A DNA stretch of 64,000 nucleotides, from positions 540,527 to 604,526 of the forward strand of contig JAHISV010000005.1 of the NCBI GenBank assembly GCA_018818065.1. Reading direction: 5' to 3'. The DNA comes from Bacteroidota bacterium. Its GTDB lineage: Bacteria > Bacteroidota > Ignavibacteria > Ignavibacteriales > Melioribacteraceae. The first letter of the stretch is position 1, and each line of letters starts with the position of its first letter. Below the pieces are notes generated by a model. That model worked only from the letters and a program-made list of their open reading frames with translations. It did not search any database and had not been told where the DNA came from. A program made the position numbers and the translations under genes. This document shows, one piece after another, positions 509-21,558 of the stretch.

Positions 509-1864
509 TTAGTTTGCCTTCCAATATGATGGTAGTTTACCGTCAACGATAATTCCCTGGTCTGCGGCTTTTTCCCATTCTAAAAGATCTTCTTCGTATA
601 GATATAATTGTTTGTTTCTAAGTGTATCGCCTTCAGCCATTATATGACAGGCGTCATAACATGCTTTGCCTTCTTCAACTTCAGTTCTGGTAGTCCACTT
701 TAATATATTATGTGGTGTAGTATATTTATAAGTCGGATGAGCATCGAAGGTTGCTAATTGATCAACTCCGTAATTTGACCATGTGTCCGGAGCCGATAGC
801 GACTGACGAAGTAAAGCAAATTTGTAAGGTTTAATTTCCGGAATAGGATTCATACCGATTTTAAAACTTTGATGAGCTTCAATTCTTGCCCCAACACCAT
901 GTACGTGACAGCTGCCGCAATTGTTGTAATCCTGGGAGTGGCATACATTACAGTTAAAAGTATCAAAGTGTTTTGCATGGTAGTCATTAGCAGTCTCCAT
1001 ACCTGAATGACAATCTGTACATTCCGGTTTTAGCGCCATTTGATAACGAGTATCATACTTAACTCCATCGCCATGTATTTCATCTGTTGAATGGCAAGTG
1101 ACACATTTGTATCCCATTTTTGTCAGGTGTACATCTGGTACAGTGCCAATAGCAACTCCATAATAGGCATGACCACCGCGGCTAACATGGCATGTTGTGC
1201 AATGATCTCTTTGATCGGGTTTAACAAAATTATGACCGGCATAAAGTCCGCCGCCGCCCTGAATAGGACGATTAACGTGGCAGTCACCGCAGCTGGCGTG
1301 GCACTTTGCACAGTTTGCTTCATAACCTTCTGCCAGATGTTCAGGAATAGAATTAAAATTATCGTAACCGCCTCTTTCTACTACCATTCTTTTTTGACCC
1401 CAGCCTTGATTATGGAGACTATTGTGAGACTTTTCATAAATAGCCGGGTGACACGTAGCGCACTTTTCTTCCGCTGATTGGGAAGGTTTCTTTATAAAAT
1501 CACCTGAATGCGCAACTGCTTTGTCTGCGGTGTTGTCAGTGCCATTGTGGCAAGTCGTACAAGCAACCTGACCATGTATACTATTTTTAAAATCAGTATA
1601 ACCAGTGCCGCCTAAATAGACTCTGTCATATGGCTCATAGTGGGGAACATCACCGCCACAGCCGGCACCACCTGTAGAGGGTGGGTCAGGAGTGTAAACA
1701 GCCTTTAGGACTTCATAATTTGTATGACAACCGTTACAGGAATTAGCCTGCATGGCCATCTCTTCTTCCTGTGATAGTGTTCCGTCATCTGTTTTTTTAT
1801 CGCAAGCCGTGAAGATGACAGTGACGATAATTAAGAGAAAAGCAATTCGCAAAATAGATTTCAT
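509..1864 (-). CDS. Decaheme-or-more c-type cytochrome lipoprotein
   Basis: A 451-residue lipoprotein: a hydrophobic signal ends in IFTAC (cysteine about residue 21). I count ten CXXCH heme motifs (for example CNGCH, CTTCH, CATCH, CAKCH, CGDCH, CVTCH, CTDCH, CNVCH, CGSCH) and one unusual CX3CH motif (CYDACH, residues 402-407) near the C-terminus. Histidines between motifs could be distal ligands. The lipid anchor suggests an outer-membrane cytochrome that hands electrons outward. A sigma-54 promoter lies about 45 bases upstream and a sigma-54 activator gene is the next gene upstream. The rhodanese lipoprotein follows 31 bases after its stop. Heme number and location are predicted from sequence; the electron partner is inferred from neighbours. 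Confidence 0.9.
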   Translation of the reverse strand: MKSILRIAFLLIIVTVIFTACDKKTDDGTLSQEEEMAMQANSCNGCHTNYEVLKAVYTPDPPSTGGAGCGGDVPHYEPYDRVYLGGTGYTDFKNSIHGQVACTTCHNGTDNTADKAVAHSGDFIKKPSQSAEEKCATCHPAIYEKSHNSLHNQGWGQKRMVVERGGYDNFNSIPEHLAEGYEANCAKCHASCGDCHVNRPIQGGGGLYAGHNFVKPDQRDHCTTCHVSRGGHAYYGVAIGTVPDVHLTKMGYKCVTCHSTDEIHGDGVKYDTRYQMALKPECTDCHSGMETANDYHAKHFDTFNCNVCHSQDYNNCGSCHVHGVGARIEAHQSFKIGMNPIPEIKPYKFALLRQSLSAPDTWSNYGVDQLATFDAHPTYKYTTPHNILKWTTRTEVEEGKACYDACHIMAEGDTLRNKQLYLYEEDLLEWEKAADQGIIVDGKLPSYWKAN

Positions 1865-3444: not shown

Positions 3445-3478
3445 AAAAAAAAAGGAACCACGAAGTGCGGTTCCTTTT
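3445..3478 (-). terminator. Rho-independent terminator of the porin-cytochrome operon
   Basis: On the minus strand a stem AAAGGAACC/GGTTCCTTT with a 9-base loop is followed by nine T residues. It lies 15 bases after the stop at 3493. It separates the conduit operon from the sigma-54 activator gene. Confidence 0.85.
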
Positions 3479-3492
3479 AAACATGGTATTAT

Positions 3493-4899
3493 TTAGTTTC
3501 CAAAAACGTTTATCATACCGTTAATATGTTTCTCTGCATTAATTATTTCACCGATTTCATTCACAACGGTATCATGGCAATCTTTACATTCTGTAATGTC
3601 AGCTTCAATATGACCAATTGGCGCTAGTCCATGACATGTACCACAAGCAACTTGTTCATCACCGGCTTGCAGCCATGTAAGGTCAACAGAATTACCTGTA
3701 ATAGTACTGCCTGAATAAGCCCATGGATATTGCGAGTCGGCTTTTGAGTATTCAAAATTACCATGGCAGTAAGTATTGTTACACTTGTAAATTTCTGTTT
3801 CATAGGATGACGCTGCAAGGGAGATATTCTGCTGATCTGTAAACACTACTTCAGAACCGTATGTAGAATCGAAGTGACCTGCATCTTTATATGTAGCCGG
3901 AACAATATGGCAACTTTCGCAGTTAATTTCACTGCCTTTGGAATTTTCAAACAAATGCTCGTTATGTAATCCAACCCTTGAGCTGTTTCTGTCAGTAACT
4001 CCGCCCAGCGCCTCGAAAGGCTGTGTAGTTGCGTTGCTATGACAGTGGTTACATGCTGTATTAGAAAGCACATTCTCACTTGTTAGCTGAATATTTCCAT
4101 CAGCGTGCAAAAGAGGGGCAATAATATTTCCTGATTCATCAACAACATCTCCATGGCAGTCGACGCACAAATTCAAATCAGCCGCAATATGACCTGTTGG
4201 AGGTAAACCATGGCAAGTGCCGCATGCGGCCTGAGTTCCATCTACCTTGGTCCATAATGGAGTAGCGTTGTTACCTGCAATAGATTCCGTGGTAAATCCC
4301 CAAGGGTTAGCTGAGCCTGACTTTGCGTAAGTAAAGTTACCGTGGCAAGCAGTGTTAGAACAAGTAGCGGCGGCGGAATTGTATCCAGGAATGGAAACTT
4401 CTGCTGGTAAACCATCTGCATGACTACTTATATAACTTTGGCCAGGAACAGTTTGATTTGGATGGCACTGGTAACAGGATAAAGGAGCAGCAATATCTAT
4501 ATCATAAATATGAGATGAATGAGCTCCAACCCCTTTATAGGTTGTTGCAACATTATTGTGCAAGTCAGTTGGGGGAGCAATTCTTGTAACATCGCCGAAA
4601 CTGCCATGGCATGTGTTACATGATTCTGGTCCACCCGGATTTGAATGACAACCGTTGCAGCTAACTTCCACAGTTCCGCCAGAATAATCGGAGGCATGGC
4701 ATTGTTGGCACGATTCAATATCCCAGTTACTTTCTGCAAGTTTTGCTGCATGAAAATTTGGGGAATCGGTGCTTGCAATTCCATCTTTGTGAATATTAAG
4801 ATGACCAGGATCTGTGAGATCATCATTAAGATCACTACAACCAATTACAAAGGCCACAAATAATATCGGGAATACGTATTTCATAATTTTATAATTCAT
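3493..4899 (-). CDS. 12-heme cytochrome c lipoprotein with CxxxxCH motifs
   Basis: About 468 residues. The ATG at 4899 (MNYKIMKYVF) has an AGG six bases upstream and is preferred over a TTG at 4914. The type II signal ends FVIGC. I count ten CXXCH and two CX4CH motifs (CSNTACH and CNNTYCH). The CX4CH motifs begin two copies of an internal repeat: CX4CH-HGNFxYxK...PW...ACGTCHGLxPxGHI-ADxxxCxDCH. This matches the Geobacter CxxxxCH...CXXCH domain of secreted multiheme proteins. It is the last gene of a four-gene unit with a beta-barrel, a 14-heme and a tetraheme cytochrome. The lipid anchor and position suggest the outer-surface cytochrome of a porin-cytochrome conduit. Role inferred. Confidence 0.88.
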   Translation of the reverse strand: MNYKIMKYVFPILFVAFVIGCSDLNDDLTDPGHLNIHKDGIASTDSPNFHAAKLAESNWDIESCQQCHASDYSGGTVEVSCNGCHSNPGGPESCNTCHGSFGDVTRIAPPTDLHNNVATTYKGVGAHSSHIYDIDIAAPLSCYQCHPNQTVPGQSYISSHADGLPAEVSIPGYNSAAATCSNTACHGNFTYAKSGSANPWGFTTESIAGNNATPLWTKVDGTQAACGTCHGLPPTGHIAADLNLCVDCHGDVVDESGNIIAPLLHADGNIQLTSENVLSNTACNHCHSNATTQPFEALGGVTDRNSSRVGLHNEHLFENSKGSEINCESCHIVPATYKDAGHFDSTYGSEVVFTDQQNISLAASSYETEIYKCNNTYCHGNFEYSKADSQYPWAYSGSTITGNSVDLTWLQAGDEQVACGTCHGLAPIGHIEADITECKDCHDTVVNEIGEIINAEKHINGMINVFGN

Positions 4900-4927
4900 T
4901 GTAAACCTATACAATTAATTTCATTCG

Positions 4928-6139
4928 TTAGTTTGATCCGTGGCAATAGCCACAGAATCCTACTCCGGGTTGTCCGGATGGTCTTGCATTAATATCAGTA
5001 TGACAGTTATAACATACAGATCCCATATCATCATGCCAGTCGCCACGTTCATTGTCAGACATAAAACCTGATTCATGAGTTCTTGGGTTCGTTCCTTTTA
5101 CTCCATCATTATCCATATGGCATAATATACAGGAAGGATCAGCACCTTGTGTGTCATGACATGCCGCACAGTTTTCAATATCTCTTCTGGCTAAAATTGC
5201 ATGTTGACCACCACCACTGCCAACGCCAATTGTGAAAAAGTCAGAGACCAGGTGTGATGTTGGAAGGAAACCTTCAGCGGCGTAATCACCACCATTGGAG
5301 CTATGGCATTCTGCACAGAATGTTTCAGTCTGATGGCATGTCTGGCAATCGGATGTTTTTCCTTTTGCTTCAATTCCATGGCTGTATCTGAAGTCAAAGT
5401 TATGTACACGCGCAATCTGCATCTGTTTTGCATCGCTCTTGTATTGATGCGGTGAATAGGGAGTATAAAAGTCAGTTACAGTATTTGTCTCATCAATCAT
5501 AGTAGTTGAAACATGACACGTTTCACAAAATGTGTTATCATGGCACATCGCACAGCTCTTGTCGTTTAAAGCTGTAAATTTATGCTCACCAAAAAAGCTA
5601 ACCAGCTTGTGATCAGCAGGGATTAAGTCTGCAGTGCCTTTATGGCAGACAACACAATTGTTGGTAGCTACACTTTGGTCATTGTGACAATCGTAACATA
5701 AAGCCATTGAAGGTAATAGCTCAGCAGATTCAAAACTGTATTCAACTTTATCCAGTCCTTTGTGGCATGTTGTACATTCCATTTCAAGGGTTCCAACATG
5801 CTGCGCATGATTAAAGAATAAGGAAGAACCAGATTGAACCAGAGGTTCAAAATTATCCTCGTAATGGCAGAGCCCGCAATTTTCTTCATCATCAACATCG
5901 TGACATGCTGCACAGTCAGATTTTTCAGGCAAAAGTCTATCAGTTAAACTCATTGCTGATGTGGCACTTGAGTGACATGTTGCACAGTCCGTGACTTCGC
6001 TATGAAATTCGTGTGAGAATTTGATAATGTTCTTATTCGTGACCTTTGGTTCATCTTCAATTAGCGTAGTGAAGCCGGTAATAGCGGAATAACCAATAAG
6101 AAGAATAAAAACAAACGAGTAATAAAATAATGATCTCAT
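4928..6139 (-). CDS. 14-heme periplasmic c-type cytochrome
   Basis: 403 residues with an N-terminal signal or anchor helix (SLFYYSFVFILLIGYSAITG). There are 14 CXXCH motifs, including CATCH, CAACH, CGLCH, CTTCH, CYDCH, CVVCH, CAMCH, CETCH, CQTCH, CAECH, CILCH, CYNCH and CGYCH, spread over the whole chain. FSHEFH and FNHAQH histidines before motifs look like c3-type distal ligands. It begins one base after the stop of the beta-barrel gene, so the two are probably translated together. No lipobox is visible. The likely role is the periplasm-facing cytochrome that feeds electrons into the barrel. Family-level function is clear; partner assignment is inference. Confidence 0.88.
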   Translation of the reverse strand: MRSLFYYSFVFILLIGYSAITGFTTLIEDEPKVTNKNIIKFSHEFHSEVTDCATCHSSATSAMSLTDRLLPEKSDCAACHDVDDEENCGLCHYEDNFEPLVQSGSSLFFNHAQHVGTLEMECTTCHKGLDKVEYSFESAELLPSMALCYDCHNDQSVATNNCVVCHKGTADLIPADHKLVSFFGEHKFTALNDKSCAMCHDNTFCETCHVSTTMIDETNTVTDFYTPYSPHQYKSDAKQMQIARVHNFDFRYSHGIEAKGKTSDCQTCHQTETFCAECHSSNGGDYAAEGFLPTSHLVSDFFTIGVGSGGGQHAILARRDIENCAACHDTQGADPSCILCHMDNDGVKGTNPRTHESGFMSDNERGDWHDDMGSVCYNCHTDINARPSGQPGVGFCGYCHGSN

Positions 6140-6140
6140 A

Positions 6141-7418
6141 TTATAATAGACTTAAGTTTGTGTTAAACCAGTAATTAATTTTGAACAGTATTCTGAAATC
6201 GTTTTTGTAAATCTTGTTATTCATATACTGAGTTTGTAAATCAAATGAAAATGCTTGGAACGGACGAACATTTACGCCGCCTAACAATGCCATTAAAGTA
6301 TTTGATTCTGAGTCTTCAGATAGTTTGTAGCTTGTATAGCTCAAACCAATGGAAGGTGTTACAAAACCATCAAGATAGGATTTTGCTGTGTAAATACTTA
6401 TCGCGTCAAGTTCACCCGAATATCCGAATGTTTTACGATAGTTTACTGTACCGTAGTTGGTATTCAGTCCCAAAGAAAGTCTTTGAGAGTCATCATCTTC
6501 GTAAGTCACATTACCGAACTTACCAACAACGGTCATGTTCTCGCAGATTTTATAATCCAATCCGGCTTCAATTTCCTGTGTGTTTCCGTAATTGAATACA
6601 GAAAAAATTGAATTGTATCTAACTCTTGGTTCGCGATAATTATAGTAAATGCTTATTCCAAGGTTTTCAATTTCCTCTAATCTACCACTGAACTGCACTT
6701 TTGATAATTCGTTGAAATTCAGATCATACTCAGCTTTAGAAAAAATTCTAAAACTATTCTTGATATTGTAAGATGCTTCTGCTGAGGCAAACTTGAACTG
6801 ATTAGAATTCTGCCTAATTAATATTTCAACCGGAGAGAAGTCTTCGTTCATTCTTATTGCTTCATATTCCATCGGCTTGAAATTTTTATCCACGTAGCTT
6901 AAAGCTAAATGAAAGTTGTCAACAGCATTCAATTCAATCTTACCGCCCAGGATGTAATCGTTTTCCCAATCATCAGTAATTTCAAGTTTTTGATATGCTG
7001 GTACATTACCTCCGTAGAACCCGGAAATTGCAACGCCCGCATACTTTAATTTGAGGCTCGCACCATCATATACACCACCAGCAATACTGCTAAAGAATGG
7101 TTGTCGTCCAATCTTAACTGTTGCGATGTCAAGTATATTTCTTGCCTCAAGATATAGATTATAAAATCTTACCCTCGGATCATTATCGAGAGTATTCATA
7201 AGATCGGTATCAAGTCCGAGACGTGTTTTAAGAGAAATATTCCCCTTGTTAACATTTAGTAATAGGGAGTTGAAGTTTCTCAGATATGTCTCGGAAACAT
7301 TTTCATTTTGAAATCTTTCGAAAGTATAAAATGAAGATGTGAATCGACCATTGATGTTTTGTGAGTAAACCGTAGCTGCCAGGGCAGCTACGGTTATTAG
7401 TAAGAATATTTTTTTCAT
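6141..7418 (-). CDS. Outer-membrane beta-barrel, probable porin of a cytochrome conduit
   Basis: 425 residues with a clear signal peptide (MKKIFLLITVAALAATVYSQ, cleavage after about residue 19). The rest alternates short amphipathic strands rich in Y, F, N and G, with strands such as VTVKIGRQPFF-like and LGLNTNYGTVNYRKTF, and ends in a final strand near FKINYWF. No enzyme motif and no heme site is present. Size and strand pattern fit a barrel of roughly 18-22 strands. It sits between a tetraheme and a 14-heme cytochrome in one operon, as porins of porin-cytochrome complexes do. I have no sequence evidence tying it to a specific porin family, so the conduit role rests on context. Confidence 0.8.
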   Translation of the reverse strand: MKKIFLLITVAALAATVYSQNINGRFTSSFYTFERFQNENVSETYLRNFNSLLLNVNKGNISLKTRLGLDTDLMNTLDNDPRVRFYNLYLEARNILDIATVKIGRQPFFSSIAGGVYDGASLKLKYAGVAISGFYGGNVPAYQKLEITDDWENDYILGGKIELNAVDNFHLALSYVDKNFKPMEYEAIRMNEDFSPVEILIRQNSNQFKFASAEASYNIKNSFRIFSKAEYDLNFNELSKVQFSGRLEEIENLGISIYYNYREPRVRYNSIFSVFNYGNTQEIEAGLDYKICENMTVVGKFGNVTYEDDDSQRLSLGLNTNYGTVNYRKTFGYSGELDAISIYTAKSYLDGFVTPSIGLSYTSYKLSEDSESNTLMALLGGVNVRPFQAFSFDLQTQYMNNKIYKNDFRILFKINYWFNTNLSLL

Positions 7419-7438
7419 CTTCGACCTGTGGTTATTTA

Positions 7439-8005
7439 TTAACCTTTTGGAATCATGTGAGAAATTTTAGCCCAGTTTTTTTCGTAATCAAAATCTTTGT
7501 TTGTTGGATGAATTTCAGTATTCTCATGGCAAGTTGCGCACTGTGCTTTAGCTGAGCCTTTAACAGAATAATCAGTCATCCCTGCAGCTACTGAAGCGGC
7601 ATGATCTTTCATTACTTTCATCGCTTTGTATTCTGAGCCGGCACCATGACAAGCTTCGCACTGTACGCCATCAGCAATTTCAAATTTCGTGTCAAATTTT
7701 GCACCTTCGTGCTGACCTGTTGCATGACATTTTAAGCAAGCTGCAGCTTTTTGTGGATCAGCTATACCCTTTTCTTTTGCAATTGCTTTACCAGCATCAC
7801 TTGACAGTACTTCAAAGGCTTTTGCATGAGCACTTTTTTCCCAGATTGCAAGCTGATTTCCGGTATTGTCTTTCTTGTGGCACATACCACATTTTTTTGA
7901 ACCGATATACTCATTTTCACCCTTAACAGGTGATGAGCCATATTCGAATGCCATTAGCATAAATGCTGCTGCGATTACGGGTAATACCAATACTTTTTTA
8001 AGCAT
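7439..8005 (-). CDS. Tetraheme cytochrome c554-family protein
   Basis: 188 residues starting at the ATG at 8005, directly after AGGAGGAAAT, a near-ideal ribosome site. A longer in-frame start at 8083 has no such site. A signal peptide (MLKKVLVLPVIAAAFMLMAF) precedes four CXXCH motifs: CGMCH, CLKCH, CEACH and CATCH. The opening YIGSKKCGMCHK...WEKSAHAKAFEVL is characteristic of the cytochrome c554/c-prime multiheme family. It is first in the conduit operon and 20 bases before the beta-barrel gene. Soluble periplasmic electron shuttle between inner-membrane quinol oxidoreductases and the outer-membrane conduit is the likely role. Strong translation signal suggests an abundant protein. Confidence 0.9.
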   Translation of the reverse strand: MLKKVLVLPVIAAAFMLMAFEYGSSPVKGENEYIGSKKCGMCHKKDNTGNQLAIWEKSAHAKAFEVLSSDAGKAIAKEKGIADPQKAAACLKCHATGQHEGAKFDTKFEIADGVQCEACHGAGSEYKAMKVMKDHAASVAAGMTDYSVKGSAKAQCATCHENTEIHPTNKDFDYEKNWAKISHMIPKG

Positions 8006-8074
8006 ATTTCCTCCTGAGTTGAATAAATAGTGAAAGCTATATTTTAGTAAAATGTTTACTTCTTGAGCACGATT

Positions 8075-8104
8075 GTTATACAACTACAATTGAATATAGA
8101 TCAA
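8075..8104 (-). promoter_or_regulatory. Possible sigma-70-type promoter of the conduit operon
   Basis: On the minus strand TTGATC (8104-8099) and TATAAC (8080-8075) are separated by 18 bases and point at the tetraheme gene, with a predicted leader of about 60 bases. No sigma-54 motif is present here. The -10/-35 match is moderate. Confidence 0.3.
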
Positions 8105-8191
8105 TATTTTTTAACTGGCAATCCTCAATTGTGATGACCGCCAAAATATTCCATTTATATGATTAAGAACTATATTAAACTAAATTCGGAA

Positions 8192-10639
8192 CTATAAATT
8201 ATTTATTAACCACTCTCTTAATTCTGGATCATTTTTTAACTCATTTTCAAACACGTCATCTGGATTGATATTGTTTTTTTCGAATGTTGATACGAATAAT
8301 TCTGTAGAGTGTTTAAAATCTTTTCTTTCCATTTTACCATCTTTATGTTTTTTCCAGGCTAAAAGTACTTCCCTGAAGTGAAGATCGTGATGGTGTCTGT
8401 ATCCTTTCAATGACATGCGACCATCGATCCATGTAAAATTCATAGGATATTCGTTTGGATGAAATATTACAAAAAACCAGTGCCAAACCAAAATTGCTAA
8501 GGAGGCTAAGATTGCCTCGTAAAAGTGAATAATCTCATTTACTTTAATAAACCAAACAGGAGCCCAATCGCCCACTATAGTCGGGAACCAAAGAACTAAT
8601 CCGGTTACGCCCATAACTATAGTACCCCAAATTAATGCCCAGTATTCTGCTTTTTCTGTATAGTCGTATTTTCCATACTTTGGTTTAGTTTTAATGATTC
8701 TCAGATAATAAAGAACTGTATCTGCAGCCTGTCTGATATCCGAAAGCTTTGGAATCATATTTGCCAGTACATCTCTACCACGTTTTGTAAGAACCAAATA
8801 GAATGCATGGTAGAAGCTTAATACTATCATTACAACGGCACTAATCCTGTGCATATTCTGTCTTATAGTCTCGTCCAGTCCTAAAAATCTTAAGCCCTCT
8901 GCCCAGAAGCTTGCAGGATATTTGAGGGCGAAACCCGTAATGGCCAATAGAATAAATGATGTTAATAAAAGAATATGTTGAATTACTTCGTTCTTTGTAA
9001 AACGAGGAATAGTAATACTTTGTTTCTCTTTTTTTCTACGCTTTCTGGCTTCATAAACAACAATAAGTAGGTTGTGTAAGAACATACCACCAATTACAAC
9101 CACCACCATCCAAAAGTATACATTTTCAACAATGCCTTCTATGAATCGAGCTTCTTCTGAATCAGAAATATGCGAATAACTTACAGCAAATTTTTCATTG
9201 GCCTCGGGGTGACATTTTTGACACGTCTTTAAAACATTAGCCTTGTTTACAGAAGATTCAGGATTCTTTTTAGGTAAAATTTTGTGAACATTGTGACAAT
9301 CAACGCACATAGCAGCGTCTTCATCACCTCTCATAACAGCAAGACCATGATAACTATCCTGATATTCAAGTGCGGCTCCCTCAATGCTATATTTAGCGAG
9401 TAGTTTAGGGTCTTGGTGACAAACTAAACAGGTCTCTTCCTGAAGTTTTTTAATTTCTTCTTTTTTAAACTCGCCATTAACAGCGTGAATACTATGTTCA
9501 CTATGGCAATCATTACAAACAGGAGAGTGTCTTACACCTTTTTTAGCCTGTATCCAGTGAATCGATTCTTCATAATCTTTTGCAATTTCTTCGTGACAGG
9601 TCGAACATGTATTAGGAATGTTATATGCAGAAATAGTTGATCCCTCTTGAGTTCTTGTCTTAATATTATGAGCTCCGTGACAAGAAGTACAACTAGCAGC
9701 ACCGCTGCCAGACTTTTCATTATACTGCCCATGAACTGAAAGCGCATAAAGGTCAGAGACCCCTTCAACACTCAGATTAAATTTTTCAACAAATTCCTTA
9801 TTGTTGTGGCATTGCCCGCAGGTGTTAACCAGTTCACCATTAAATAATCCACTACCCGGCTTATTTACAGGTTGGATTAAATGAGAGCCATGGCAGCTCC
9901 AACAAGCGGCGGCTTCGTCAATTCCTTCTGCCAGGGAAACACCATGTATGCTTTCTTTGTGTATTTCGAACTCTGCTTTATGACAACCACTGCAGGTAGC
10001 CTTGCTAATATTTGGTACACCTTCCTGATGAAGATCAAAATTATTTACTTCGTAAATATGACAATCTGCACATACTAAACCATCGTGAACGGATCTTGTA
10101 AGGTTTTCTGAGAAGCCTTCAACCTCGTGACATTCAGCGCAATTATTATCAGACAAGTATTGAGTAGTATGATATTTCCCATTAAAATTCACACTCTCAT
10201 GGCATTTTCCACAGAATTCTTTTCCTTTATTCTTTACCTCTGAAGGAGGCATTATATAGTGAGTTCCGTGGCATGTCATACAATTTGGCGCACGATTACC
10301 AACTTTATCACCCAATCTATGATGAATATCATTATCAACCTGCTCTTGATAACCATCGTGGCAGTTGCTACAATTAACTTTTGCGATATTACTACCTGCC
10401 AGATGGGGCATTTCTTCAGCGTCAAAATCCTGGTGGCAATCTGTACATTCAACTCCGCCGTGTACAGAAGCAGCAAATTTATCAGCATGGACGAATAATG
10501 AGACTTCTTTTCCCATGCGTTCCATAGTCAGCGTATCATCGGAGTGACAATCAATGCATTCTTCTTGAGCAAATAAGGAACCAGATAGTTGTAAAAATAA
10601 TATTACAACAAAGAATCGGATATAGGTATCATATTTCAT
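8192..10639 (-). CDS. Fused 16-heme cytochrome c / cytochrome b quinol oxidoreductase (CbcL-like)
   Basis: 815 residues. After a signal peptide (cleavage near SLFAQ), residues 28-480 carry 16 CXXCH motifs. A membrane helix (about 507-530) leads into a cytochrome b domain (about 550-750) with four more helices and membrane histidines (QHILLLTSF, NMHRISAVVM, FYHAFYLV, IIHFYEAILA, VWHWFFVIFH), typical of formate-dehydrogenase-gamma/HydC-type diheme b subunits. Geobacter CbcL has the same architecture and oxidises menaquinol while passing electrons to periplasmic cytochromes. Its N-terminal 95 residues closely match those of the 23-heme protein at 11574-13871, and its C-terminal half resembles the separate cytochrome b at 10679, so it is a fused paralogue of those two genes. 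It is third in their operon. Confidence 0.9.
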   Translation of the reverse strand: MKYDTYIRFFVVILFLQLSGSLFAQEECIDCHSDDTLTMERMGKEVSLFVHADKFAASVHGGVECTDCHQDFDAEEMPHLAGSNIAKVNCSNCHDGYQEQVDNDIHHRLGDKVGNRAPNCMTCHGTHYIMPPSEVKNKGKEFCGKCHESVNFNGKYHTTQYLSDNNCAECHEVEGFSENLTRSVHDGLVCADCHIYEVNNFDLHQEGVPNISKATCSGCHKAEFEIHKESIHGVSLAEGIDEAAACWSCHGSHLIQPVNKPGSGLFNGELVNTCGQCHNNKEFVEKFNLSVEGVSDLYALSVHGQYNEKSGSGAASCTSCHGAHNIKTRTQEGSTISAYNIPNTCSTCHEEIAKDYEESIHWIQAKKGVRHSPVCNDCHSEHSIHAVNGEFKKEEIKKLQEETCLVCHQDPKLLAKYSIEGAALEYQDSYHGLAVMRGDEDAAMCVDCHNVHKILPKKNPESSVNKANVLKTCQKCHPEANEKFAVSYSHISDSEEARFIEGIVENVYFWMVVVVIGGMFLHNLLIVVYEARKRRKKEKQSITIPRFTKNEVIQHILLLTSFILLAITGFALKYPASFWAEGLRFLGLDETIRQNMHRISAVVMIVLSFYHAFYLVLTKRGRDVLANMIPKLSDIRQAADTVLYYLRIIKTKPKYGKYDYTEKAEYWALIWGTIVMGVTGLVLWFPTIVGDWAPVWFIKVNEIIHFYEAILASLAILVWHWFFVIFHPNEYPMNFTWIDGRMSLKGYRHHHDLHFREVLLAWKKHKDGKMERKDFKHSTELFVSTFEKNNINPDDVFENELKNDPELREWLINNL

Positions 10640-10678
10640 TTCGTGTTTCGCTATTTTTTTTAGAATTATAGTTACCAG

Positions 10679-11590
10679 TTATTGATATAAAAAGAGCATA
10701 GAGTAAATAATCATTAGAACTGTTGTCAGTCCAATTAATAAAGCAACTGTACCGAAAATTCTGGAGGCTCTTAGTAATCCTTTCTTTGGTGCAGCTACAA
10801 AGTAGTTTTCAAGCTCTCCACTTTCTTTTAATATTTTATACTGTCTTGGTCTGTCTTCCTTAAATTCTTCCAATGACATGCTGCCCGTAAAGATTACGGT
10901 ATCCATAGGAAATTTATCCGGACGAAAGTGAGTATTAAAAAAGTGAACAGTAAAAATAAATCCGGTAGCAAGTAATGCTTCGTCACTATGTATAATCGTA
11001 GCGACATTTATCACTTCCCCGGGAAGTCCTAAGCTTGTAAAAAAAGCAGGGAACCAGAGCAGAAGTCCACTAAAACCGATTACCATTACACCCCAGAAAA
11101 CGGCGAAATAATCAAATTTTTCCCAATACGTCCATCTTCCATATTCGGGTCTTGGACCCAAACCGAGAAACCACTTAATTGTCTGGTAAAACTCAATTGC
11201 ATCTTGCTTCCGCGGAACCATTGTGTTTTCACCGGTGAACATGTATTTAAAAGTATGACCATCCTTTTTTTTCTTAAAAAGGGAACCGGTATGCAAAGCG
11301 AAGTAGCCAAAGGTTATAATGGCAGCAAATCGATGAAGAAAACCAGTAACTTTATAACCGCCTAAGATATCTGAAAGGAACTGGAATACTCCAACACCCG
11401 AAAATTTTATTATCATTCCCGTTACAGATAAGGTAAGGAATGATGTAATGATCATAATATGCATTACTCTTGTATATGTATCGAACCGTCGGACGTGAAT
11501 ATCTTTTTCGTTTTCCTCTGATCCCGAGATAGTATTTCCTAAAGCGTCAGTATATTTCAAATTCTCTTGAGTATTATTCTCCTGAGTCAT
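10679..11590 (-). CDS. Cytochrome b subunit (formate dehydrogenase gamma / HydC type)
   Basis: 303 residues from the ATG at 11590, which follows GAGGG by six bases and overlaps the end of the upstream 23-heme gene by 17 bases. After a charged N-terminus of about 40 residues there are four helices with membrane histidines (TRVMHIMIITSF, GFLHRFAAI, YFALHTGSLF, IIHSDEALLATGFIF), the pattern of a diheme b-type quinol-binding subunit, then a C-terminal fifth helix (LIGLTTVLMIIYSMLF). The cytoplasmic loop FKYMFTGENTMVPRK and YPMD/FPMD-like segments resemble the b domain of the fused protein at 8192-10639. It probably oxidises menaquinol and gives electrons to the 23-heme partner. Confidence 0.87.
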   Translation of the reverse strand: MTQENNTQENLKYTDALGNTISGSEENEKDIHVRRFDTYTRVMHIMIITSFLTLSVTGMIIKFSGVGVFQFLSDILGGYKVTGFLHRFAAIITFGYFALHTGSLFKKKKDGHTFKYMFTGENTMVPRKQDAIEFYQTIKWFLGLGPRPEYGRWTYWEKFDYFAVFWGVMVIGFSGLLLWFPAFFTSLGLPGEVINVATIIHSDEALLATGFIFTVHFFNTHFRPDKFPMDTVIFTGSMSLEEFKEDRPRQYKILKESGELENYFVAAPKKGLLRASRIFGTVALLIGLTTVLMIIYSMLFLYQ

Positions 11591-13871
11591 CTGTTCCCTC
11601 TTTTCTGGCAGCAATTTGTTTTTTCTGTTTGTTATGTTTTTTCTTTTCAGCTAAAGCTCTTGGTAACCATAGTAAAGTGTGCAATCCAAAGAAAGTGAAT
11701 GTACTTAAAAGCAATATTGTCATTCCCCAGAAAGTATAATAAAGAAAAGGATATTTGTCTTTATCATGATGAGTTGCATGTGTGAGATAGCCAACAAATT
11801 TTTTGTTTGATTGAGGATGGCAGGTCTTACATGTTTCTACCACGTTTTCTCTGCTTAATTTGGATTCAGGCATATATGTTGGAAGTATATCATGAGATCC
11901 ATGACAATCATAGCATTTTGCTGTTTTTACAGAACCAAGTTTGGAAACTTTTCCATGAAAAGTTTCGAAATATGTTGCTGTTACTTCTTCGTGACATCTA
12001 CCGCACTGGGTATATATCCCTTGCCTGAAATCATCAAGGTCAGTTCTTTCTATGGTATGCGATTTATGACAATCTCTACAGCCCGGTAACTCTTTATCTG
12101 TTTTGGTAACCAAAGGACTGTGGATACTTTTGTTAAACTTCTCTAAAATACCAAGATGACATTTTGCGCAAGTATTTGCAACGTTGTGCTGGTTAACTGA
12201 AGACATAAGATCACTTGCCGGTAATTCCTTGTGAGCAGTATGGCAGTCAACGCAAGTTGCGGTTACCATCAAACCGCTTTCAAGTAGTCCTTTTCCATGT
12301 ATGCTCATCTTGTAATTCTCAACAATTGAACCTTCAGGAGTACTAGAAGCCTTTTCTGCGCGTCCATCAGCTTTGTGGCATTTACCACACAAATTCGGAA
12401 TATTTCTGGCAAAAGTAGGAGCAGCTGTATTGTCTTTTTTCAGAATGTTGTGTTTGCCGTGGCAGTCAATACATTCAGGTGCGTGCTTATCCCCGGCTGC
12501 TAGTTTTATACCATGCGTACTCAAATTAAAATCATCAACCTGACCTGCATGACATGTTGAACAATCAACTTTACCACTATTTATGCAAACTGGCTTTCTT
12601 GCCGTACTAACATTAGAATGACAGTTAATACAAGTCTTTTCTTTATGCGCAGAATTGTTGTGATCATCAATATTTACGTATAAGGATACTTTTTCACCAT
12701 TTACGACTTTTGATAAATTCTGATCTTTATGGCACGTCATACAATAATCATTTGTATAGTCCTGTTCGTAGAAAACCCTTCTTACCTGGTGAGGCTGGTG
12801 GCAATCAATGCAAACAGGAATGGAATTCGGGTTTTTTTCCCAGAGTTCACCATTTATAACCTGCTGATGTACTTTCTCAATTTGCTGGTGACACTGCATA
12901 CAAGTATTTGCAATGTTCTTTCTGTTAATGGATGAATTTATATCTTCATGAGGCAAAATGCTGTGTGAAAAGTGGCAGCTTGTACAAACTGCACTTACAA
13001 TCAGACCTTTCTTCAATAACCCTTCACCATGGATAGACTCGGAATAGTTTTCCAATATATGTCTTTGATCTATATTCTTAAGAGTAGAGACATCAGTACC
13101 GTCTTTATGGCAATTTCCGCACAATTTGGGAATATTCATCACATATGTTTTTGAAGATTGGTCTTTCCCTGATCTTATATCATGGCTATTATGGCAAGTA
13201 ATACAATTTGGAGCCATCACTTTTTGTTTGGAAAGCGCTTTGCCATGCAGACTGTTTTCAAAATTAGCGACTGGCACTTTATGGCAGGTTCTGCAGATAT
13301 CATGTAATTCATTTTCGGAAAACTTAGCCGGTTGAATTTGGTGAGTTGATCCATTATGGCAATCAAGGCAAGTTGGTGAAGTTTCACCTTCTTTAAGTTT
13401 TGCAAAGTGAACACTTTTTGTGAAGTTTTTTACGTTAGCATTTTTATGACATGTTATGCAAAACTGTTCAATGTTCTTTTTTAATTCGGATGTTTCTTTA
13501 ATCTCATGGCTGGAATGACAATCCGCGCAATTAAGACCCTTTTGAAAGTGGACACTTTCCTTGTAAGCTTCTACATCGTGACAATTGCTGCAATCAACCT
13601 TATAAATATTTGTGCCTTCTCTATGTGGTTCCTCGGCTGGGTCGAAATCAACATGGCATTCAACACATTCTAATTCACCGTGAATACTTTCGGCAAATTT
13701 ATCTGCATGAATAAATAAGGACATTTCTTTTCCATTTCTTTCATATGTCATTGAATCATCAGAATGACATTCCAGGCAGTCTTCGTTTTGCGCAAACAAA
13801 GACATTCCTGAAACAAAGATGAAAAGAAATGTTCCACGTACAATATTGTGAAACGTTTGCTTGATAGCCAT
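11574..13871 (-). CDS. 23-heme membrane-anchored c-type cytochrome
   Basis: 765 residues with a signal peptide (TFLFIFVSGMSLFAQ) and, by my count, 23 CXXCH motifs between residues 33 and about 695. A single C-terminal helix (YYTFWGMTILLLSTFTFFGL) followed by lysine-rich cytoplasmic residues anchors it to the inner membrane. The hemes come in repeats of the form SIHG(x)nC..CH..H(x)nNIxxxCxxCH, as in large NrfH/OTR-like multiheme chains. An AGGGG sits eight bases before the ATG. The cytochrome b at 10679 overlaps its 3' end, so the two likely form a two-subunit menaquinol:cytochrome c reductase. It is first in its operon. Confidence 0.88.
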   Translation of the reverse strand: MAIKQTFHNIVRGTFLFIFVSGMSLFAQNEDCLECHSDDSMTYERNGKEMSLFIHADKFAESIHGELECVECHVDFDPAEEPHREGTNIYKVDCSNCHDVEAYKESVHFQKGLNCADCHSSHEIKETSELKKNIEQFCITCHKNANVKNFTKSVHFAKLKEGETSPTCLDCHNGSTHQIQPAKFSENELHDICRTCHKVPVANFENSLHGKALSKQKVMAPNCITCHNSHDIRSGKDQSSKTYVMNIPKLCGNCHKDGTDVSTLKNIDQRHILENYSESIHGEGLLKKGLIVSAVCTSCHFSHSILPHEDINSSINRKNIANTCMQCHQQIEKVHQQVINGELWEKNPNSIPVCIDCHQPHQVRRVFYEQDYTNDYCMTCHKDQNLSKVVNGEKVSLYVNIDDHNNSAHKEKTCINCHSNVSTARKPVCINSGKVDCSTCHAGQVDDFNLSTHGIKLAAGDKHAPECIDCHGKHNILKKDNTAAPTFARNIPNLCGKCHKADGRAEKASSTPEGSIVENYKMSIHGKGLLESGLMVTATCVDCHTAHKELPASDLMSSVNQHNVANTCAKCHLGILEKFNKSIHSPLVTKTDKELPGCRDCHKSHTIERTDLDDFRQGIYTQCGRCHEEVTATYFETFHGKVSKLGSVKTAKCYDCHGSHDILPTYMPESKLSRENVVETCKTCHPQSNKKFVGYLTHATHHDKDKYPFLYYTFWGMTILLLSTFTFFGLHTLLWLPRALAEKKKHNKQKKQIAARKEGTDDSGE

Positions 13872-13937
13872 TACTACAACCCCTATAAAATAAGGTTCAT
13901 TTTACATTAGATATCCGAGAAAGAAATTAATGCTATT

Positions 13938-14014
13938 GATACAAAAGGAGCGAATTAACTCTTTATGTGGTAAAGCAAACATCGTTTCATAAGTAAAAAA
14001 GACATTTGTATCAG
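13938..14014. repeat. Inverted repeat TGATACAAA ... TTTGTATCA in the promoter gap
   Basis: Two 9-base arms, TGATACAAA (13938-13946) and TTTGTATCA (14006-14014), are exact reverse complements 59 bases apart in the gap between the regulator operon and the 23-heme operon. They could be paired operator half-sites for looping control of the operon at 13871. This may also be chance in AT-rich DNA. Confidence 0.3.
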
Positions 14015-14104
14015 ATATCCAAATTCCTGGCTATAAACTAAAAAAAAAATGGTTTAAAGAAAACTTTATAGTGTAAAATATCAGCACACTTTAAATATTA
14101 ATTA

Positions 14105-15250: not shown

Positions 15251-15274
15251 TTTATACTCCAGATTAATTTTTAA

Positions 15275-17958: not shown

Positions 17959-17971
17959 ATGAAGCCAGTAT

Positions 17972-19075
17972 TTATTTAGTTAATGTACCCGGCATAAAAT
18001 CTGGGTATTCTATATCGTCATGACAATTTCCACAAGATGGTTTTGTGAAATTATCATCAATATGGCAATCAGCACATTCATTTTCAAGGTGAATCTCGTC
18101 CAGCCTTAATCCTGTTATCGCATGATCAAAGTTTTCTGAAGACCAGCTATCATGACAGTTACTGCATTTGGATTTTAAACCTGTAAAAACACCTTTCTTT
18201 TGATGACATGAACTACAACTTAATTTGCTGTGCAATTTGTTCAACTGCCAGCCTGTTCGTTGTCCATGATCAAATCCTGGTTTTTCCTTTTGTGCATGAC
18301 AACTGGAACAATTATTATCTGTGTCGTGGCATGAAGCACAATTTTCGTGAGTTTCGTGTACCATTTTAGATTTTAATTTATCGGGATTCTTATCATGACA
18401 CTTGATACAGCTTTCCTGAGAGTGACAGGATTGACATTCGAGTCCAAATAAATCTACATGTTCCTTGTGATTAAAAGTAACAATTTTACCATTTGCATAT
18501 TCAGTGTTAATAACCATTCTCTCTGGAGTTTTAATTTCCGGGTGAACAGTTTTAGGCATTGGTTTTGTATCAATGTTCGAAGGTTTACCTTCATTCATGG
18601 CGTGGCATGAAACACAATTGATTTCATGAGACCACCCTCTATGACAATCAATGCACTGGCGATGGTATGCTGCTTTCAAGTCGGGTTTTGAAATATCTTC
18701 ACGTTTCCTTCCGGTTTCATGGCATTCAATACAGGTAAGGATTCTACCGGGAGGATTATAGTGATGACAGGTCTGACATCCGCCTGCAAGATGGGACATT
18801 TCAGCATGTAATTGATGAGTGAAATGAACAGGTTGATATATATTTTCAATTTTTTCAAATCTGTTAATCAGAATATTTTCAGGCGCCTCTTTTGCCGAAT
18901 GTTTAACAGAAACAAGGTACTCGCGAATGCACTCACGTACGCATGGATTATTTTTTGTAGGCACCTCGCATGTATGACACGTGGAGCATTGTAGCTCCTG
19001 GGTAACAAAATGTGGTTTCTCCTGAGCGAAAAGACCAGTGCTTAATATTATTATAATCATTGATATAATTTTCAT
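17972..19075 (-). CDS. 13-heme c-type cytochrome subunit of a HybA/HybB-type complex
   Basis: 367 residues with a short signal peptide (ending TGLFAQ). I count 13 CXXCH motifs, from CSTCH near residue 30 to CGNCH near 350, plus an extra non-heme cysteine set (CHTCEVP...CVREC) after the first motif. FTHQLH, FNHKEH and similar histidines look like distal heme ligands. Its ATG overlaps the stop of the NrfD-like gene (ATGA), and the Fe-S gene precedes that, so the three encode one inner-membrane complex: quinol oxidation in the NrfD-like subunit, electrons through Fe-S clusters and these hemes to the periplasm. The composition resembles Cbc, Hmc or Qrc complexes, without the molybdopterin-like subunit of Qrc. 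Confidence 0.88.
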   Translation of the reverse strand: MKIISMIIIILSTGLFAQEKPHFVTQELQCSTCHTCEVPTKNNPCVRECIREYLVSVKHSAKEAPENILINRFEKIENIYQPVHFTHQLHAEMSHLAGGCQTCHHYNPPGRILTCIECHETGRKREDISKPDLKAAYHRQCIDCHRGWSHEINCVSCHAMNEGKPSNIDTKPMPKTVHPEIKTPERMVINTEYANGKIVTFNHKEHVDLFGLECQSCHSQESCIKCHDKNPDKLKSKMVHETHENCASCHDTDNNCSSCHAQKEKPGFDHGQRTGWQLNKLHSKLSCSSCHQKKGVFTGLKSKCSNCHDSWSSENFDHAITGLRLDEIHLENECADCHIDDNFTKPSCGNCHDDIEYPDFMPGTLTK

Positions 19076-20313
19076 CTTAATATCCCCCTAATAGCATATT
19101 TGGTTTTGGCTGACTTTTCTTCCGTTGGTACGCTAATAACCGGGAATATCATAACAAAGGCTCTGTAGAGCAGAACTTCTAGTGCTACGAAACCAAGAGT
19201 GACAGAGATTTCCCCGATGGAAGGAAAATATGAATAATCCGCGTAAGGAGGAGTATAAGCTGTAATAAAAGTATTAAAACGATTCATGAATACGCCAAAG
19301 ATGACCAGAGAGGAAGCAATGAATAGCATGTTTGGTGATTTTCTGACCTCCTTAGACATGAATAATCTTAGTGGTAAGACGAACCCAACAATTAGTTCGA
19401 TTGAGAACATGATGCTGACTGAAGAAAATTCTGCCAGATATACATAAGCTTCTCTTATTAATATGTCAACACTTCTGATGATAATAAAAACACCAAGAAG
19501 CGGTGGCATCATTTCACTAAGTTTTTCCAGAATATGAGTTTCAGGCTTTAGTCTAAAGGCTCTTGAAGAAATAACAGATTCGAACATAACCATAGGAAAA
19601 CCAACGCCGATAGCTGAAACAAGATAAAGCAAAGGCAGTATTGGTGTTTGCCAAAGCGGGTGCATTTTATCTCCCGCGATAATCATCAAAGTGCCAAGTG
19701 AAGATTGATGCAAGCAAGATAGCACGACACCAGTTATTATAAATACGAACATGAATTTTGATAATGTTCTGTCCAGTATTCGTAAACCTTTATCAATCAC
19801 ATTGTTAAGTTTTGAAAGTATTCCGGGTAAATTCACATGACCAATAAATCTTTCCGTAACTATGGGAAGAAACTCAATGTACAGAACTGTAAGGTACATC
19901 ATAACACAAATGCCAACTTCAAACAGCGCTGAATTTCCATTCCAGTAAATCAAAGCGTGCCATATATAATACCATCTACCAATATCGATAGATACACTTG
20001 CGGCGGCAAAAGTATAGCCAAGAAGAGCAGTTAAAAGCGCGGGTCTCACTATAGTTTCATATTCTTCTTTATGGAAGATATGGGCAAGAGCTGCAGTAGT
20101 AAAACCACCGGCAGCAAGGGCAACACCCAAGGCAACATCAAGTCCAATCCAAATACCCCAGGGGTATTGATTGTCAAGGTTAGTTATTGCCCCGATTCCG
20201 AAAACGAATCTTCCCAGTACAAAGGCAATCCCCACTAGTGCGAAAATTGTAATTACAATTACACCGGGAGTAAAAAATTTATACTTCATAGGTTTTGGTA
20301 ATAATATGCTCAT
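19072..20313 (-). CDS. HybB/NrfD-family integral membrane quinone-reacting subunit
   Basis: 413 residues with about ten membrane helices. The N-terminal third (FFTPGVIVITIFALVGIAFV, YPWGIWIGLDVALGVALAAG, FTTAALAHIF) is typical of the HybB branch of NrfD-like proteins, which bind menaquinol and carry no heme. A CGGAG seven bases before the ATG gives a good start, two codons after the Fe-S gene stop. The 3' end overlaps the 13-heme gene by four bases. The role is inner-membrane menaquinol oxidation, passing electrons to the periplasmic Fe-S partner. No unusual feature was seen. Confidence 0.9.
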   Translation of the reverse strand: MSILLPKPMKYKFFTPGVIVITIFALVGIAFVLGRFVFGIGAITNLDNQYPWGIWIGLDVALGVALAAGGFTTAALAHIFHKEEYETIVRPALLTALLGYTFAAASVSIDIGRWYYIWHALIYWNGNSALFEVGICVMMYLTVLYIEFLPIVTERFIGHVNLPGILSKLNNVIDKGLRILDRTLSKFMFVFIITGVVLSCLHQSSLGTLMIIAGDKMHPLWQTPILPLLYLVSAIGVGFPMVMFESVISSRAFRLKPETHILEKLSEMMPPLLGVFIIIRSVDILIREAYVYLAEFSSVSIMFSIELIVGFVLPLRLFMSKEVRKSPNMLFIASSLVIFGVFMNRFNTFITAYTPPYADYSYFPSIGEISVTLGFVALEVLLYRAFVMIFPVISVPTEEKSAKTKYAIRGILR

Positions 20314-20316
20314 GAA

Positions 20317-21222
20317 TTACTCCGTATCAGGTTCGGATTTTGATTTATTTTTATTTAACCACATTATTCCACCCAACAAGGCAAACAGAGATGCCGGAGG
20401 AACGAAGTATGAAAAGATTCCATGCTGGATTGCTTCGGAAACACCAGGAGCTGCTTTAGTGGACAGCTTAGGGAATTTAAGTTTGTCGAAATCCATGCCT
20501 GCCAAATACATCCAGGAAGTACCACCAACTTCATGTTCACCCAGTATGTGTTCTTTATAACGCTCGGGATACAGATTAATTCTTTTTTTAGCCAGCTTTA
20601 GAAGTTCACTCCTTTTTCCATAAGTAACGGCTTCAACGGGGCATATCTCCACGCAAGCTGGTAAAAGTGCCTCTTTTGTCCTTTCAAAACAGAAGTCGCA
20701 TTTTGTAATATCAGGCTGTAAAGCCTTATGATACTCAAAAGTTGGAATCTGAAAAGGACAAGCAACCATGCAAAATCGGCAACCGATACATTTGTCAGTA
20801 TCCCAAATGACTGAACCGTTTTCCTGCTTAGTCATGGCGCCGACAATACAGGCTGATACGCAAGCAGGTTCATTACAATGCATGCACTGAACCTTTACAT
20901 CGTAAGGTTTTGATTCAGCGGTTGGATTACGGAATTCATTGACCACCGTTAACGAAGTGTGATCTGGTCGCCGATAGTTTTCGAAGGCTGATCGGTTGTC
21001 ATAGTCTTCGATGGGTTTCGTATCAATATTATGGGCTTTTTTGCATGCCCATTCACATTTCCTGCAGCCAATACACACAGTAGTATCGACTAAAACTCCC
21101 ATCGGGTCTATCGATGAGGTTGGATTTCCGCTTGCAAAGAGTTTGGTTGCGCTTGCACCAACCAGAGCAGTTGCAGAAATTGTCGTAATTTTTAGAAAAT
21201 CTCTTCTGGATTGATTTTTCAT
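20317..21222 (-). CDS. HybA-like Tat-exported 4Fe-4S electron transfer subunit
   Basis: 301 residues from the ATG at 21222 (AGGA seven bases upstream; the TTG at 21228 is less likely). The N-terminus has a twin-arginine signal, SRRDFLK followed by a hydrophobic stretch to KLFASG. Four cysteine groups follow the HybA/DmsB pattern: CIGCRKCEWAC, CMHCNEPACVSAC, CIGCRFCMVACPF and CDFCFER...CVEICP, enough for four [4Fe-4S] clusters. A C-terminal helix (about 270-290) anchors the protein to the membrane, as in HybA. It is the first gene of a six-gene unit that runs through NrfD-like, cytochrome, kinase and two regulators. A TTGACA/TATTTT promoter lies about 145 bases upstream. Confidence 0.92.
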   Translation of the reverse strand: MKNQSRRDFLKITTISATALVGASATKLFASGNPTSSIDPMGVLVDTTVCIGCRKCEWACKKAHNIDTKPIEDYDNRSAFENYRRPDHTSLTVVNEFRNPTAESKPYDVKVQCMHCNEPACVSACIVGAMTKQENGSVIWDTDKCIGCRFCMVACPFQIPTFEYHKALQPDITKCDFCFERTKEALLPACVEICPVEAVTYGKRSELLKLAKKRINLYPERYKEHILGEHEVGGTSWMYLAGMDFDKLKFPKLSTKAAPGVSEAIQHGIFSYFVPPASLFALLGGIMWLNKNKSKSEPDTE

Positions 21223-21558
21223 ATTCAATTCCTAATAGGATAATAATATAAGAACATCTTTTTGTCTCTTTATTTTCAAAAAAGTTAAATCTTTGCTAAT
21301 AATATCTATATTCAGAGCATTTTCGACAAAATGATAAACGGACATCTTAATACCATTAACCACAAAATATTCATTTGGAAGGTATTTGTCAATATAAAAC
21401 AATATTTATTGATTGATGCTTTTTGAACATAAATGAGATAAATCTGATTGTTGAATTAACAAGCATTCGAAAATAAATTTTACAATGAGCAAAAAAAATG
21501 GTAGTTTTACCCCCAATTTTAACCTTCAAAAAAATCTTACCATGATGAGAGCAAATAG
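21223..21558. other. 336-base divergent promoter region
   Basis: AT-rich gap between the HybA-like operon (leftward) and the aromatic-amino-acid fusion gene (rightward). It contains the leftward promoter listed separately. A six-codon open frame MMRANR overlaps the start of the rightward gene but has no aromatic codons, so I do not read it as an attenuator leader. I see no terminator or RNA gene in it. Confidence 0.6.
21364..21392 (-). promoter_or_regulatory. Sigma-70-type promoter for the HybA-like operon
   Basis: On the minus strand TTGACA (21392-21387) and TATTTT (21369-21364) are separated by exactly 17 bases. The same pair of hexamers and spacing occurs at the tetR promoter (42381-42409). 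The leader to the ATG at 21222 would be about 135 bases. Confidence 0.45.

What the first reader, a model, noticed from the sequence alone, without database searches (positions are those of the whole stretch)
3445..8005. Four-gene porin-cytochrome conduit operon
Tetraheme, beta-barrel, 14-heme and 12-heme lipoprotein genes are packed with gaps of 1-28 bases and end in a strong terminator. The order and predicted sites match porin-cytochrome complexes that move electrons across the outer membrane. No member matches a named conduit family that I can recognise, so it may be a new type.
Basis: partly seen in the sequence, partly recalled or inferred. Interest (0 to 1): 0.68.

Follow-up and report, generated by a model that had tools for sequence, protein, structure and literature searches.

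The report
Ignavibacterial outer-membrane electron conduit operon
These four genes very probably build a wire that carries respiratory electrons across the cell's outer membrane to targets outside the cell; it is a real and intact system, but the same four-gene arrangement was already reported in 2014 in a related bacterium and runs through this whole bacterial class.

Summary
On the minus strand lie a 4-heme cytochrome, a 425-residue protein, a 14-heme cytochrome and a 12-heme (10 CxxCH + 2 CxxxxCH) lipoprotein, with gaps of 20, 1 and 28 bases (43 with the alternative start) and a 12-pair terminator at the end. The 425-residue protein is predicted to be a beta-barrel with about 22-24 strands. 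The host is an ignavibacterial (Melioribacteraceae-like) genome. The order 4-heme / barrel / 14-heme / lipoprotein recurs in nearly all of about 55 Ignavibacteria loci examined, often downstream of cytochrome-b/multiheme quinone-oxidase genes. The conduit reading is therefore well supported, though no experiment exists. The 'new type' suggestion is not supported. Shi et al. 2014 (PMC4245776) described this arrangement in Ignavibacterium album (IALB_1840-1837), including a 400-residue, 14-heme protein. Profile comparison also links barrel, 14-heme and lipoprotein to adjacent genes in Myxococcota. It is not the MtrB/PioB family. The one distinctive feature of this copy is a C-terminal duplication in the surface cytochrome (7+5 hemes), unique among the ignavibacterial homologues examined. 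Verdict: new member of a known kind, modest interest.

The parts
7439..8005 (-). 4-heme periplasmic c-type cytochrome, Cytochrome_C554 family (188 aa), first gene of the conduit unit
   Evidence: 4 CxxCH; PF13435 E 1.1e-17; alignment A3
6141..7418 (-). outer-membrane beta-barrel of the conduit (425 aa with signal peptide, about 22-24 strands)
   Evidence: AF2 pLDDT 82, 24 strand elements; Foldseek hits to outer-membrane barrels; no Pfam/NCBIfam hit; conserved in 48 of 58 relatives
4928..6139 (-). 14-heme c-type cytochrome (403 aa, N-terminal Sec-type signal, c7-like N-terminal modules), proposed to sit in the barrel
   Evidence: 14 CxxCH, 14 in 30 of the 31 Ignavibacteria homologues; c7 and GSU1996-type relatives in PDB
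3493..4899 (-). 12-heme outer-membrane (probably surface) lipoprotein cytochrome; start 4899 or 4884
   Evidence: 10 CxxCH + 2 CxxxxCH; lipobox and LES-like CSDLNDD; GSu_C4xC__C2xCH modules
3493..4089 (-). duplicated C-terminal 5-heme module of the lipoprotein (copy of residues about 89-269)
   Evidence: internal alignment score 299 against a shuffle maximum of 61; second profile hit in the same ORF; absent from aligned homologues
3450..3478 (-). intrinsic terminator at the end of the unit
   Evidence: 12-pair stem, 5-base loop, T tail
8093..8121 (-). candidate promoter upstream of the 4-heme gene (TTGCCA-17-TATATT), in a 186-base gap
   Evidence: consensus match only, region total 23 vs 16.6 +/- 4.3 expected
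8192..10639 (-). 16-heme / cytochrome b561 membrane protein, CbcL/MtrH/MtoC-like quinol oxidase candidate
   Evidence: 16 CxxCH; Ni_hydr_CYTB E 5.9e-15; adjacent in many relatives
10679..11614 (-). cytochrome b561-type membrane protein
   Evidence: Ni_hydr_CYTB E 3.8e-10
11574..13871 (-). 23-heme cytochrome
   Evidence: 23 CxxCH; Paired_CXXCH_1 and related families
17972..21228 (-). HmcB/HybA-like iron-sulfur protein, NrfD/HybB-like membrane protein and Hmc-type multiheme cytochrome: second quinone-interacting module in the same run of genes
   Evidence: NF045715, NF008133, NF045713 matches
509..1864 (-). 10-heme (plus CYDACH) lipoprotein, beyond the sigma-54 regulator at 2082-3416; possible accessory surface cytochrome
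   Evidence: regulator plus this gene co-conserved downstream of the conduit in many relatives

Best explanation
This is the ignavibacterial porin-cytochrome (Pcc) conduit. Proposed path: menaquinol is oxidised in the inner membrane by the adjacent cytochrome-b/multiheme (CbcL-like) and Fe-S/NrfD/multiheme modules; electrons pass through periplasmic multiheme proteins, including the 4-heme cytochrome, to the 14-heme cytochrome, which is threaded through the barrel; they then reach the lipid-anchored multiheme cytochrome on the cell surface, which hands them to an extracellular acceptor (Fe(III)/Mn(IV) oxide, humics, an electrode or a partner cell). Shown here: gene content, conserved order, barrel fold prediction, lipoprotein signal, heme motif counts, homology to porin-cytochrome clusters elsewhere. 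Inferred: insertion of the 14-heme protein into the barrel, surface exposure, direction of flow, and the acceptor.
For: Barrel model. Heme counts. Four-gene order kept across Ignavibacteria. 14 hemes almost invariant in the middle cytochrome. Lipobox plus acidic surface-export-like motif C-S-(D/E)-x-x-(D/E/N)-(D/E/N) in the lipoprotein family, resembling the SDDFE/SDDDD signals of Bacteroidota (PMC5080379). Quinone-oxidase-type neighbours on the same strand, conserved in many relatives. Profile homology of the barrel to Myxococcota porins adjacent to homologous 13-14-heme cytochromes, with column-shuffle and reversal controls negative. Same arrangement published for I. album as a pcc cluster.
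Against: No experiment on any member of this subfamily was found. Shi et al. note that I. album, which carries this cluster, did not grow on Fe(III) or Mn(IV) oxides, so the acceptor may be something else. The 14-heme model was poor (pLDDT 52), so insertion into the barrel could not be examined. No direct sequence comparison with Geobacter OmbB/OmaB/OmcB was possible here.
Confidence: 0.87

Rival explanations
1. A porin-cytochrome conduit used in the inward direction, taking electrons from Fe(II) or another extracellular donor.
For: Conduits are reversible in principle, and CbcL/MtrH/MtoC-type proteins occur in both metal reducers and Fe(II) oxidisers (PMC6295460).
Against: Shi et al. 2014 state that no pcc cluster was known in Fe(II) oxidisers at that date; the neighbourhood has quinol-oxidase-type modules, and, from general knowledge, the cultured relatives are anaerobic or facultative organotrophs.
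Confidence: 0.07
2. The barrel is an ordinary diffusion or export porin and the cytochromes form a periplasmic respiratory chain (for example to a soluble reductase), with no trans-membrane wire.
For: Top Foldseek hits are general porins, ushers and AlgE rather than MtrB; the 4-heme protein is of the c554 family.
Against: Strict linkage of barrel and 14-heme genes across the class, homologous pairing in Myxococcota, and the lipoprotein with an outer-membrane/surface-type signal. No terminal reductase was recognised within the gene run 3493-21228.
Confidence: 0.05
3. A categorically new conduit type with no relation to described ones.
For: No Pfam, NCBIfam or PDB sequence match for the barrel.
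Against: Same cluster published in I. album; profile homology to Myxococcota porin-cytochrome pairs.
Confidence: 0.01

Closest known systems
Ignavibacterium album pcc cluster IALB_1840-1839-1838-1837 (Shi et al. 2014, PMC4245776)
   Same: Periplasmic cytochrome, porin, 400-residue 14-heme cytochrome, outer-membrane cytochrome with atypical heme motifs; the paper's text matches the window in gene kinds, size and heme count. A 3.67-Mb single-contig relative (G035, L063) shows 400 aa / 14 hemes and 6+1 hemes in the lipoprotein.
   Different: The window's lipoprotein has 12 hemes through a C-terminal duplication. IALB sequences themselves were not available by name, so the link is by description, not a direct alignment.
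Myxococcota porin + 13-14-heme cytochrome clusters (cf. Anaeromyxobacter group IV Pcc)
   Same: Barrel profile match, probability 95-98%; 13-14-heme homologue directly downstream; two loci have a homologue of the lipoprotein as well (L127; L062).
Geobacter OmbB-OmaB-OmcB
   Same: Porin / periplasmic cytochrome / 12-heme outer-membrane cytochrome order; porin of similar size class.
   Different: OmaB has 8 hemes; Shi et al. place the ignavibacterial proteins outside the Geobacter groups. Not compared directly here.
Shewanella MtrCAB / PioAB
   Same: Works alike: barrel sheathing a multiheme cytochrome, surface multiheme partner.
   Different: No PF11854 (MtrB_PioB) hit in the barrel or in the whole genome; 14 rather than 10 hemes; a much smaller barrel protein.

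Membership tests
Pcc porin-cytochrome clusters (Shi et al. 2014, broad sense) | Porin-like outer-membrane protein gene beside a periplasmic multiheme cytochrome gene | tested here: met
Pcc porin-cytochrome clusters (Shi et al. 2014, broad sense) | Usually an adjacent outer-membrane multiheme cytochrome | tested here: met
   lipobox and 12 heme motifs; surface exposure itself untested
Pcc porin-cytochrome clusters (Shi et al. 2014, broad sense) | 5-14 heme motifs in the periplasmic cytochrome | tested here: met
   14
Pcc porin-cytochrome clusters (Shi et al. 2014, broad sense) | 18-22 predicted strands in the porin | tested here: inconclusive
   24 strand elements in the model, some short and possibly loop hairpins, so about 22-24; a different predictor was used in the paper
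Ignavibacterium album-type pcc cluster | Periplasmic cytochrome, porin, ~400-aa 14-heme cytochrome and outer-membrane cytochrome with atypical motifs, adjacent | tested here: met
   against the text
Ignavibacterium album-type pcc cluster | Direct sequence orthology to IALB_1837-1840 | not testable with these tools
   I. album record not retrievable by name; class-wide homologues of the same sizes were found
Geobacter OmbB/OmaB/OmcB group | Sequence homology to OmbB and 8-heme OmaB | tested here: inconclusive
   OmbB not available for comparison; heme number differs (14 against 8); PMC7399161 calls other Ignavibacteria porins OmbB-like
MtrB/PioB (PF11854) | Match to the MtrB_PioB model | tested here: not met
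MtrA / DmsE decaheme (TIGR03508) | 10 hemes and match to the decaheme model | tested here: not met
   14 hemes; no TIGR03508 match for 4928-6139
[quoted passage not shown]
   needs an experiment

The most novel reading that the evidence does not exclude
The Ignavibacteria/Myxococcota proteins form a structurally distinct conduit class: a barrel of about 22-24 strands holding a 14-heme cytochrome long enough to span the membrane alone, with a dedicated 4-heme feeder and a surface cytochrome that evolves by adding heme modules at either end while the core stays fixed.
Probability: 0.3. Interest if true: 0.5.

Novelty: new member of a known kind. Interest (0 to 1): 0.3.

Why it matters
Outside Proteobacteria and Desulfobacterota, outer-membrane conduits are almost untested. 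This family is widespread in Ignavibacteria, which are common in sediments, groundwater and on anodes, and its barrel matches no Pfam or NCBIfam model, so automatic annotation misses it. The fixed core with a variable surface cytochrome gives a natural series for testing what the surface heme number does.

Tried and rejected
Sequence search of the barrel against PDB, alone and as a profile: nothing meaningful. AF2 of the 14-heme cytochrome: too poor to interpret (pLDDT 52). MtrB/PioB membership: rejected. Comparison of the barrel profile with the single L062 Myxococcota ORF: not significant; profile against profile it was, and shuffled or reversed controls were not. Phylum-wide search: barrel found in 57 of 396 genomes, all within the class. 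A second copy of the conduit in the own genome was not found.

Full report
Observation. The four genes are as described, on the minus strand in the order 4-heme (7439-8005), 425-residue protein (6141-7418), 14-heme (4928-6139), 12-heme lipoprotein (3493-4899, or 4884). Gaps are 20, 1 and 28 bases (43 with the alternative start), and a 12-pair terminator follows at 3478-3450. The 12 hemes of the last protein are 10 CxxCH and 2 CxxxxCH motifs; the latter are of the GSu_C4xC__C2xCH kind.

Host. The best homologues of the 14-heme protein lie in Ignavibacteriales/Melioribacteraceae genomes; the window is part of a 3.95-Mb, 16-contig assembly.

Barrel. No Pfam, NCBIfam or PDB sequence match exists. 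An AlphaFold2 model from 28 homologues has mean pLDDT 82, a signal helix and 24 strand elements; solved outer-membrane barrels are the Foldseek matches, best E 1.4e-9. The pTM of 0.71 and modest TM-scores mean that the exact strand number (about 22-24) is uncertain.

Conservation. The porin was found in 48 of 58 relatives and in 57 of 396 genomes sampled from the phylum, all within the same class. The order 4-heme / porin / 14-heme / lipoprotein recurs in almost all loci that extend far enough, including families outside the order; in a few loci outside the order (for example L098, L102) no 4-heme gene of this family sits directly upstream. The middle cytochrome has 14 motifs in 30 of the 31 homologues (13 in L046); two loci outside the order have 12 (L098, L100). 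Porin and 14-heme proteins are conserved at about 64% mean column identity, the lipoprotein much less.

Surface cytochrome. Of 56 homologues from the loci in hand, the commonest has 7 heme motifs; totals of 9 and 11 are also common, and 13 occurs. The alignment shows additions at the N-terminal end in several relatives. The window's protein alone among the ignavibacterial homologues carries a second C-terminal CxxxxCH module, adding 5 hemes to reach 12; a myxococcal relative (L062) also has two. Nearly all carry a lipoprotein cysteine, followed in most by S-(D/E)-x-x-(D/E/N)-(D/E/N), similar to published Bacteroidota lipoprotein export signals (PMC5080379). That resemblance is suggestive only; I know of no test of such a signal in Ignavibacteria.

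Context. Upstream on the same strand are a 16-heme/cytochrome b561 protein of the CbcL/MtrH/MtoC type, another cytochrome b, a 23-heme cytochrome, two response regulators, a sensor kinase, and an HmcB/NrfD/HmcA-like module. Several of these keep their place in relatives. They supply a plausible route from the quinone pool to the conduit. A 186-base gap with a promoter-like match separates the four genes from this block, so they may be transcribed separately.

Relation to known systems. Shi et al. 2014 (PMC4245776) reported pcc clusters in many bacteria, among them I. album, with a periplasmic cytochrome IALB_1840, porin IALB_1839, the 14-heme, 400-residue IALB_1838 and an outer-membrane cytochrome IALB_1837 with atypical motifs; the I. 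album porin and 14-heme protein fell outside their five groups. The window is evidently the same kind of cluster. I could not retrieve the I. album record by name, so orthology rests on order, size, heme number and class-wide conservation. A 2020 study reported further Ignavibacteria PCCs, calling them OmbB-like (PMC7399161). In Myxococcota, homologues of the 14-heme protein occur in 98 of 237 genomes at E <= 1e-12, though many of these are partial c7-type matches. In several of the best loci a barrel-like ORF ends at the start of that gene, and profile comparison links those porins to the ignavibacterial ones (95-98% probability; shuffled and reversed controls at most 1.7%). MtrB/PioB and MtrA membership were tested and not met.

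Conclusion. The conduit reading is well supported by anatomy and conservation; electron transfer itself, direction and acceptor are inferred, and I. album was reported not to grow on Fe(III) or Mn(IV) oxides. The finding is a good, intact member of a known but poorly studied kind.

Noticed in passing
window 14105-15250 and 15275-16078: Two response regulators beside the cytochrome genes; the first fuses a receiver domain to a GcvH-like domain, and the second has a similar-looking C-terminal region by eye. By eye the lipoyl-lysine position of the first seems to be lost. Both are kept beside the conduit in many relatives.
   Followed up: partly
window 16075-17958: Sensor histidine kinase with a CxxCH motif and a longer-spaced heme-like motif in its sensor region, possibly a heme-based redox sensor for this operon.
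   Followed up: no
L094 3048-9354 (just left of the window): A cytochrome c maturation gene (CcsB-like) and hemA, hemC, hemD, hemE, hemN follow the conduit region; genes of the same lengths lie just downstream of the conduit in many relatives.
   Followed up: partly
L094 10032-11003: Putative lipoprotein with two rhodanese-like domains between the 10-heme lipoprotein gene and the heme-synthesis genes.
   Followed up: no
window 509-1864 and 2082-3416: A PAS/sigma-54 activator and a 10-heme lipoprotein with one CxxxCH motif follow the conduit and are co-conserved in many relatives.
   Followed up: partly
window 3493-4089: C-terminal 5-heme duplication in the surface cytochrome, unique among the ignavibacterial homologues examined.
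   Followed up: yes
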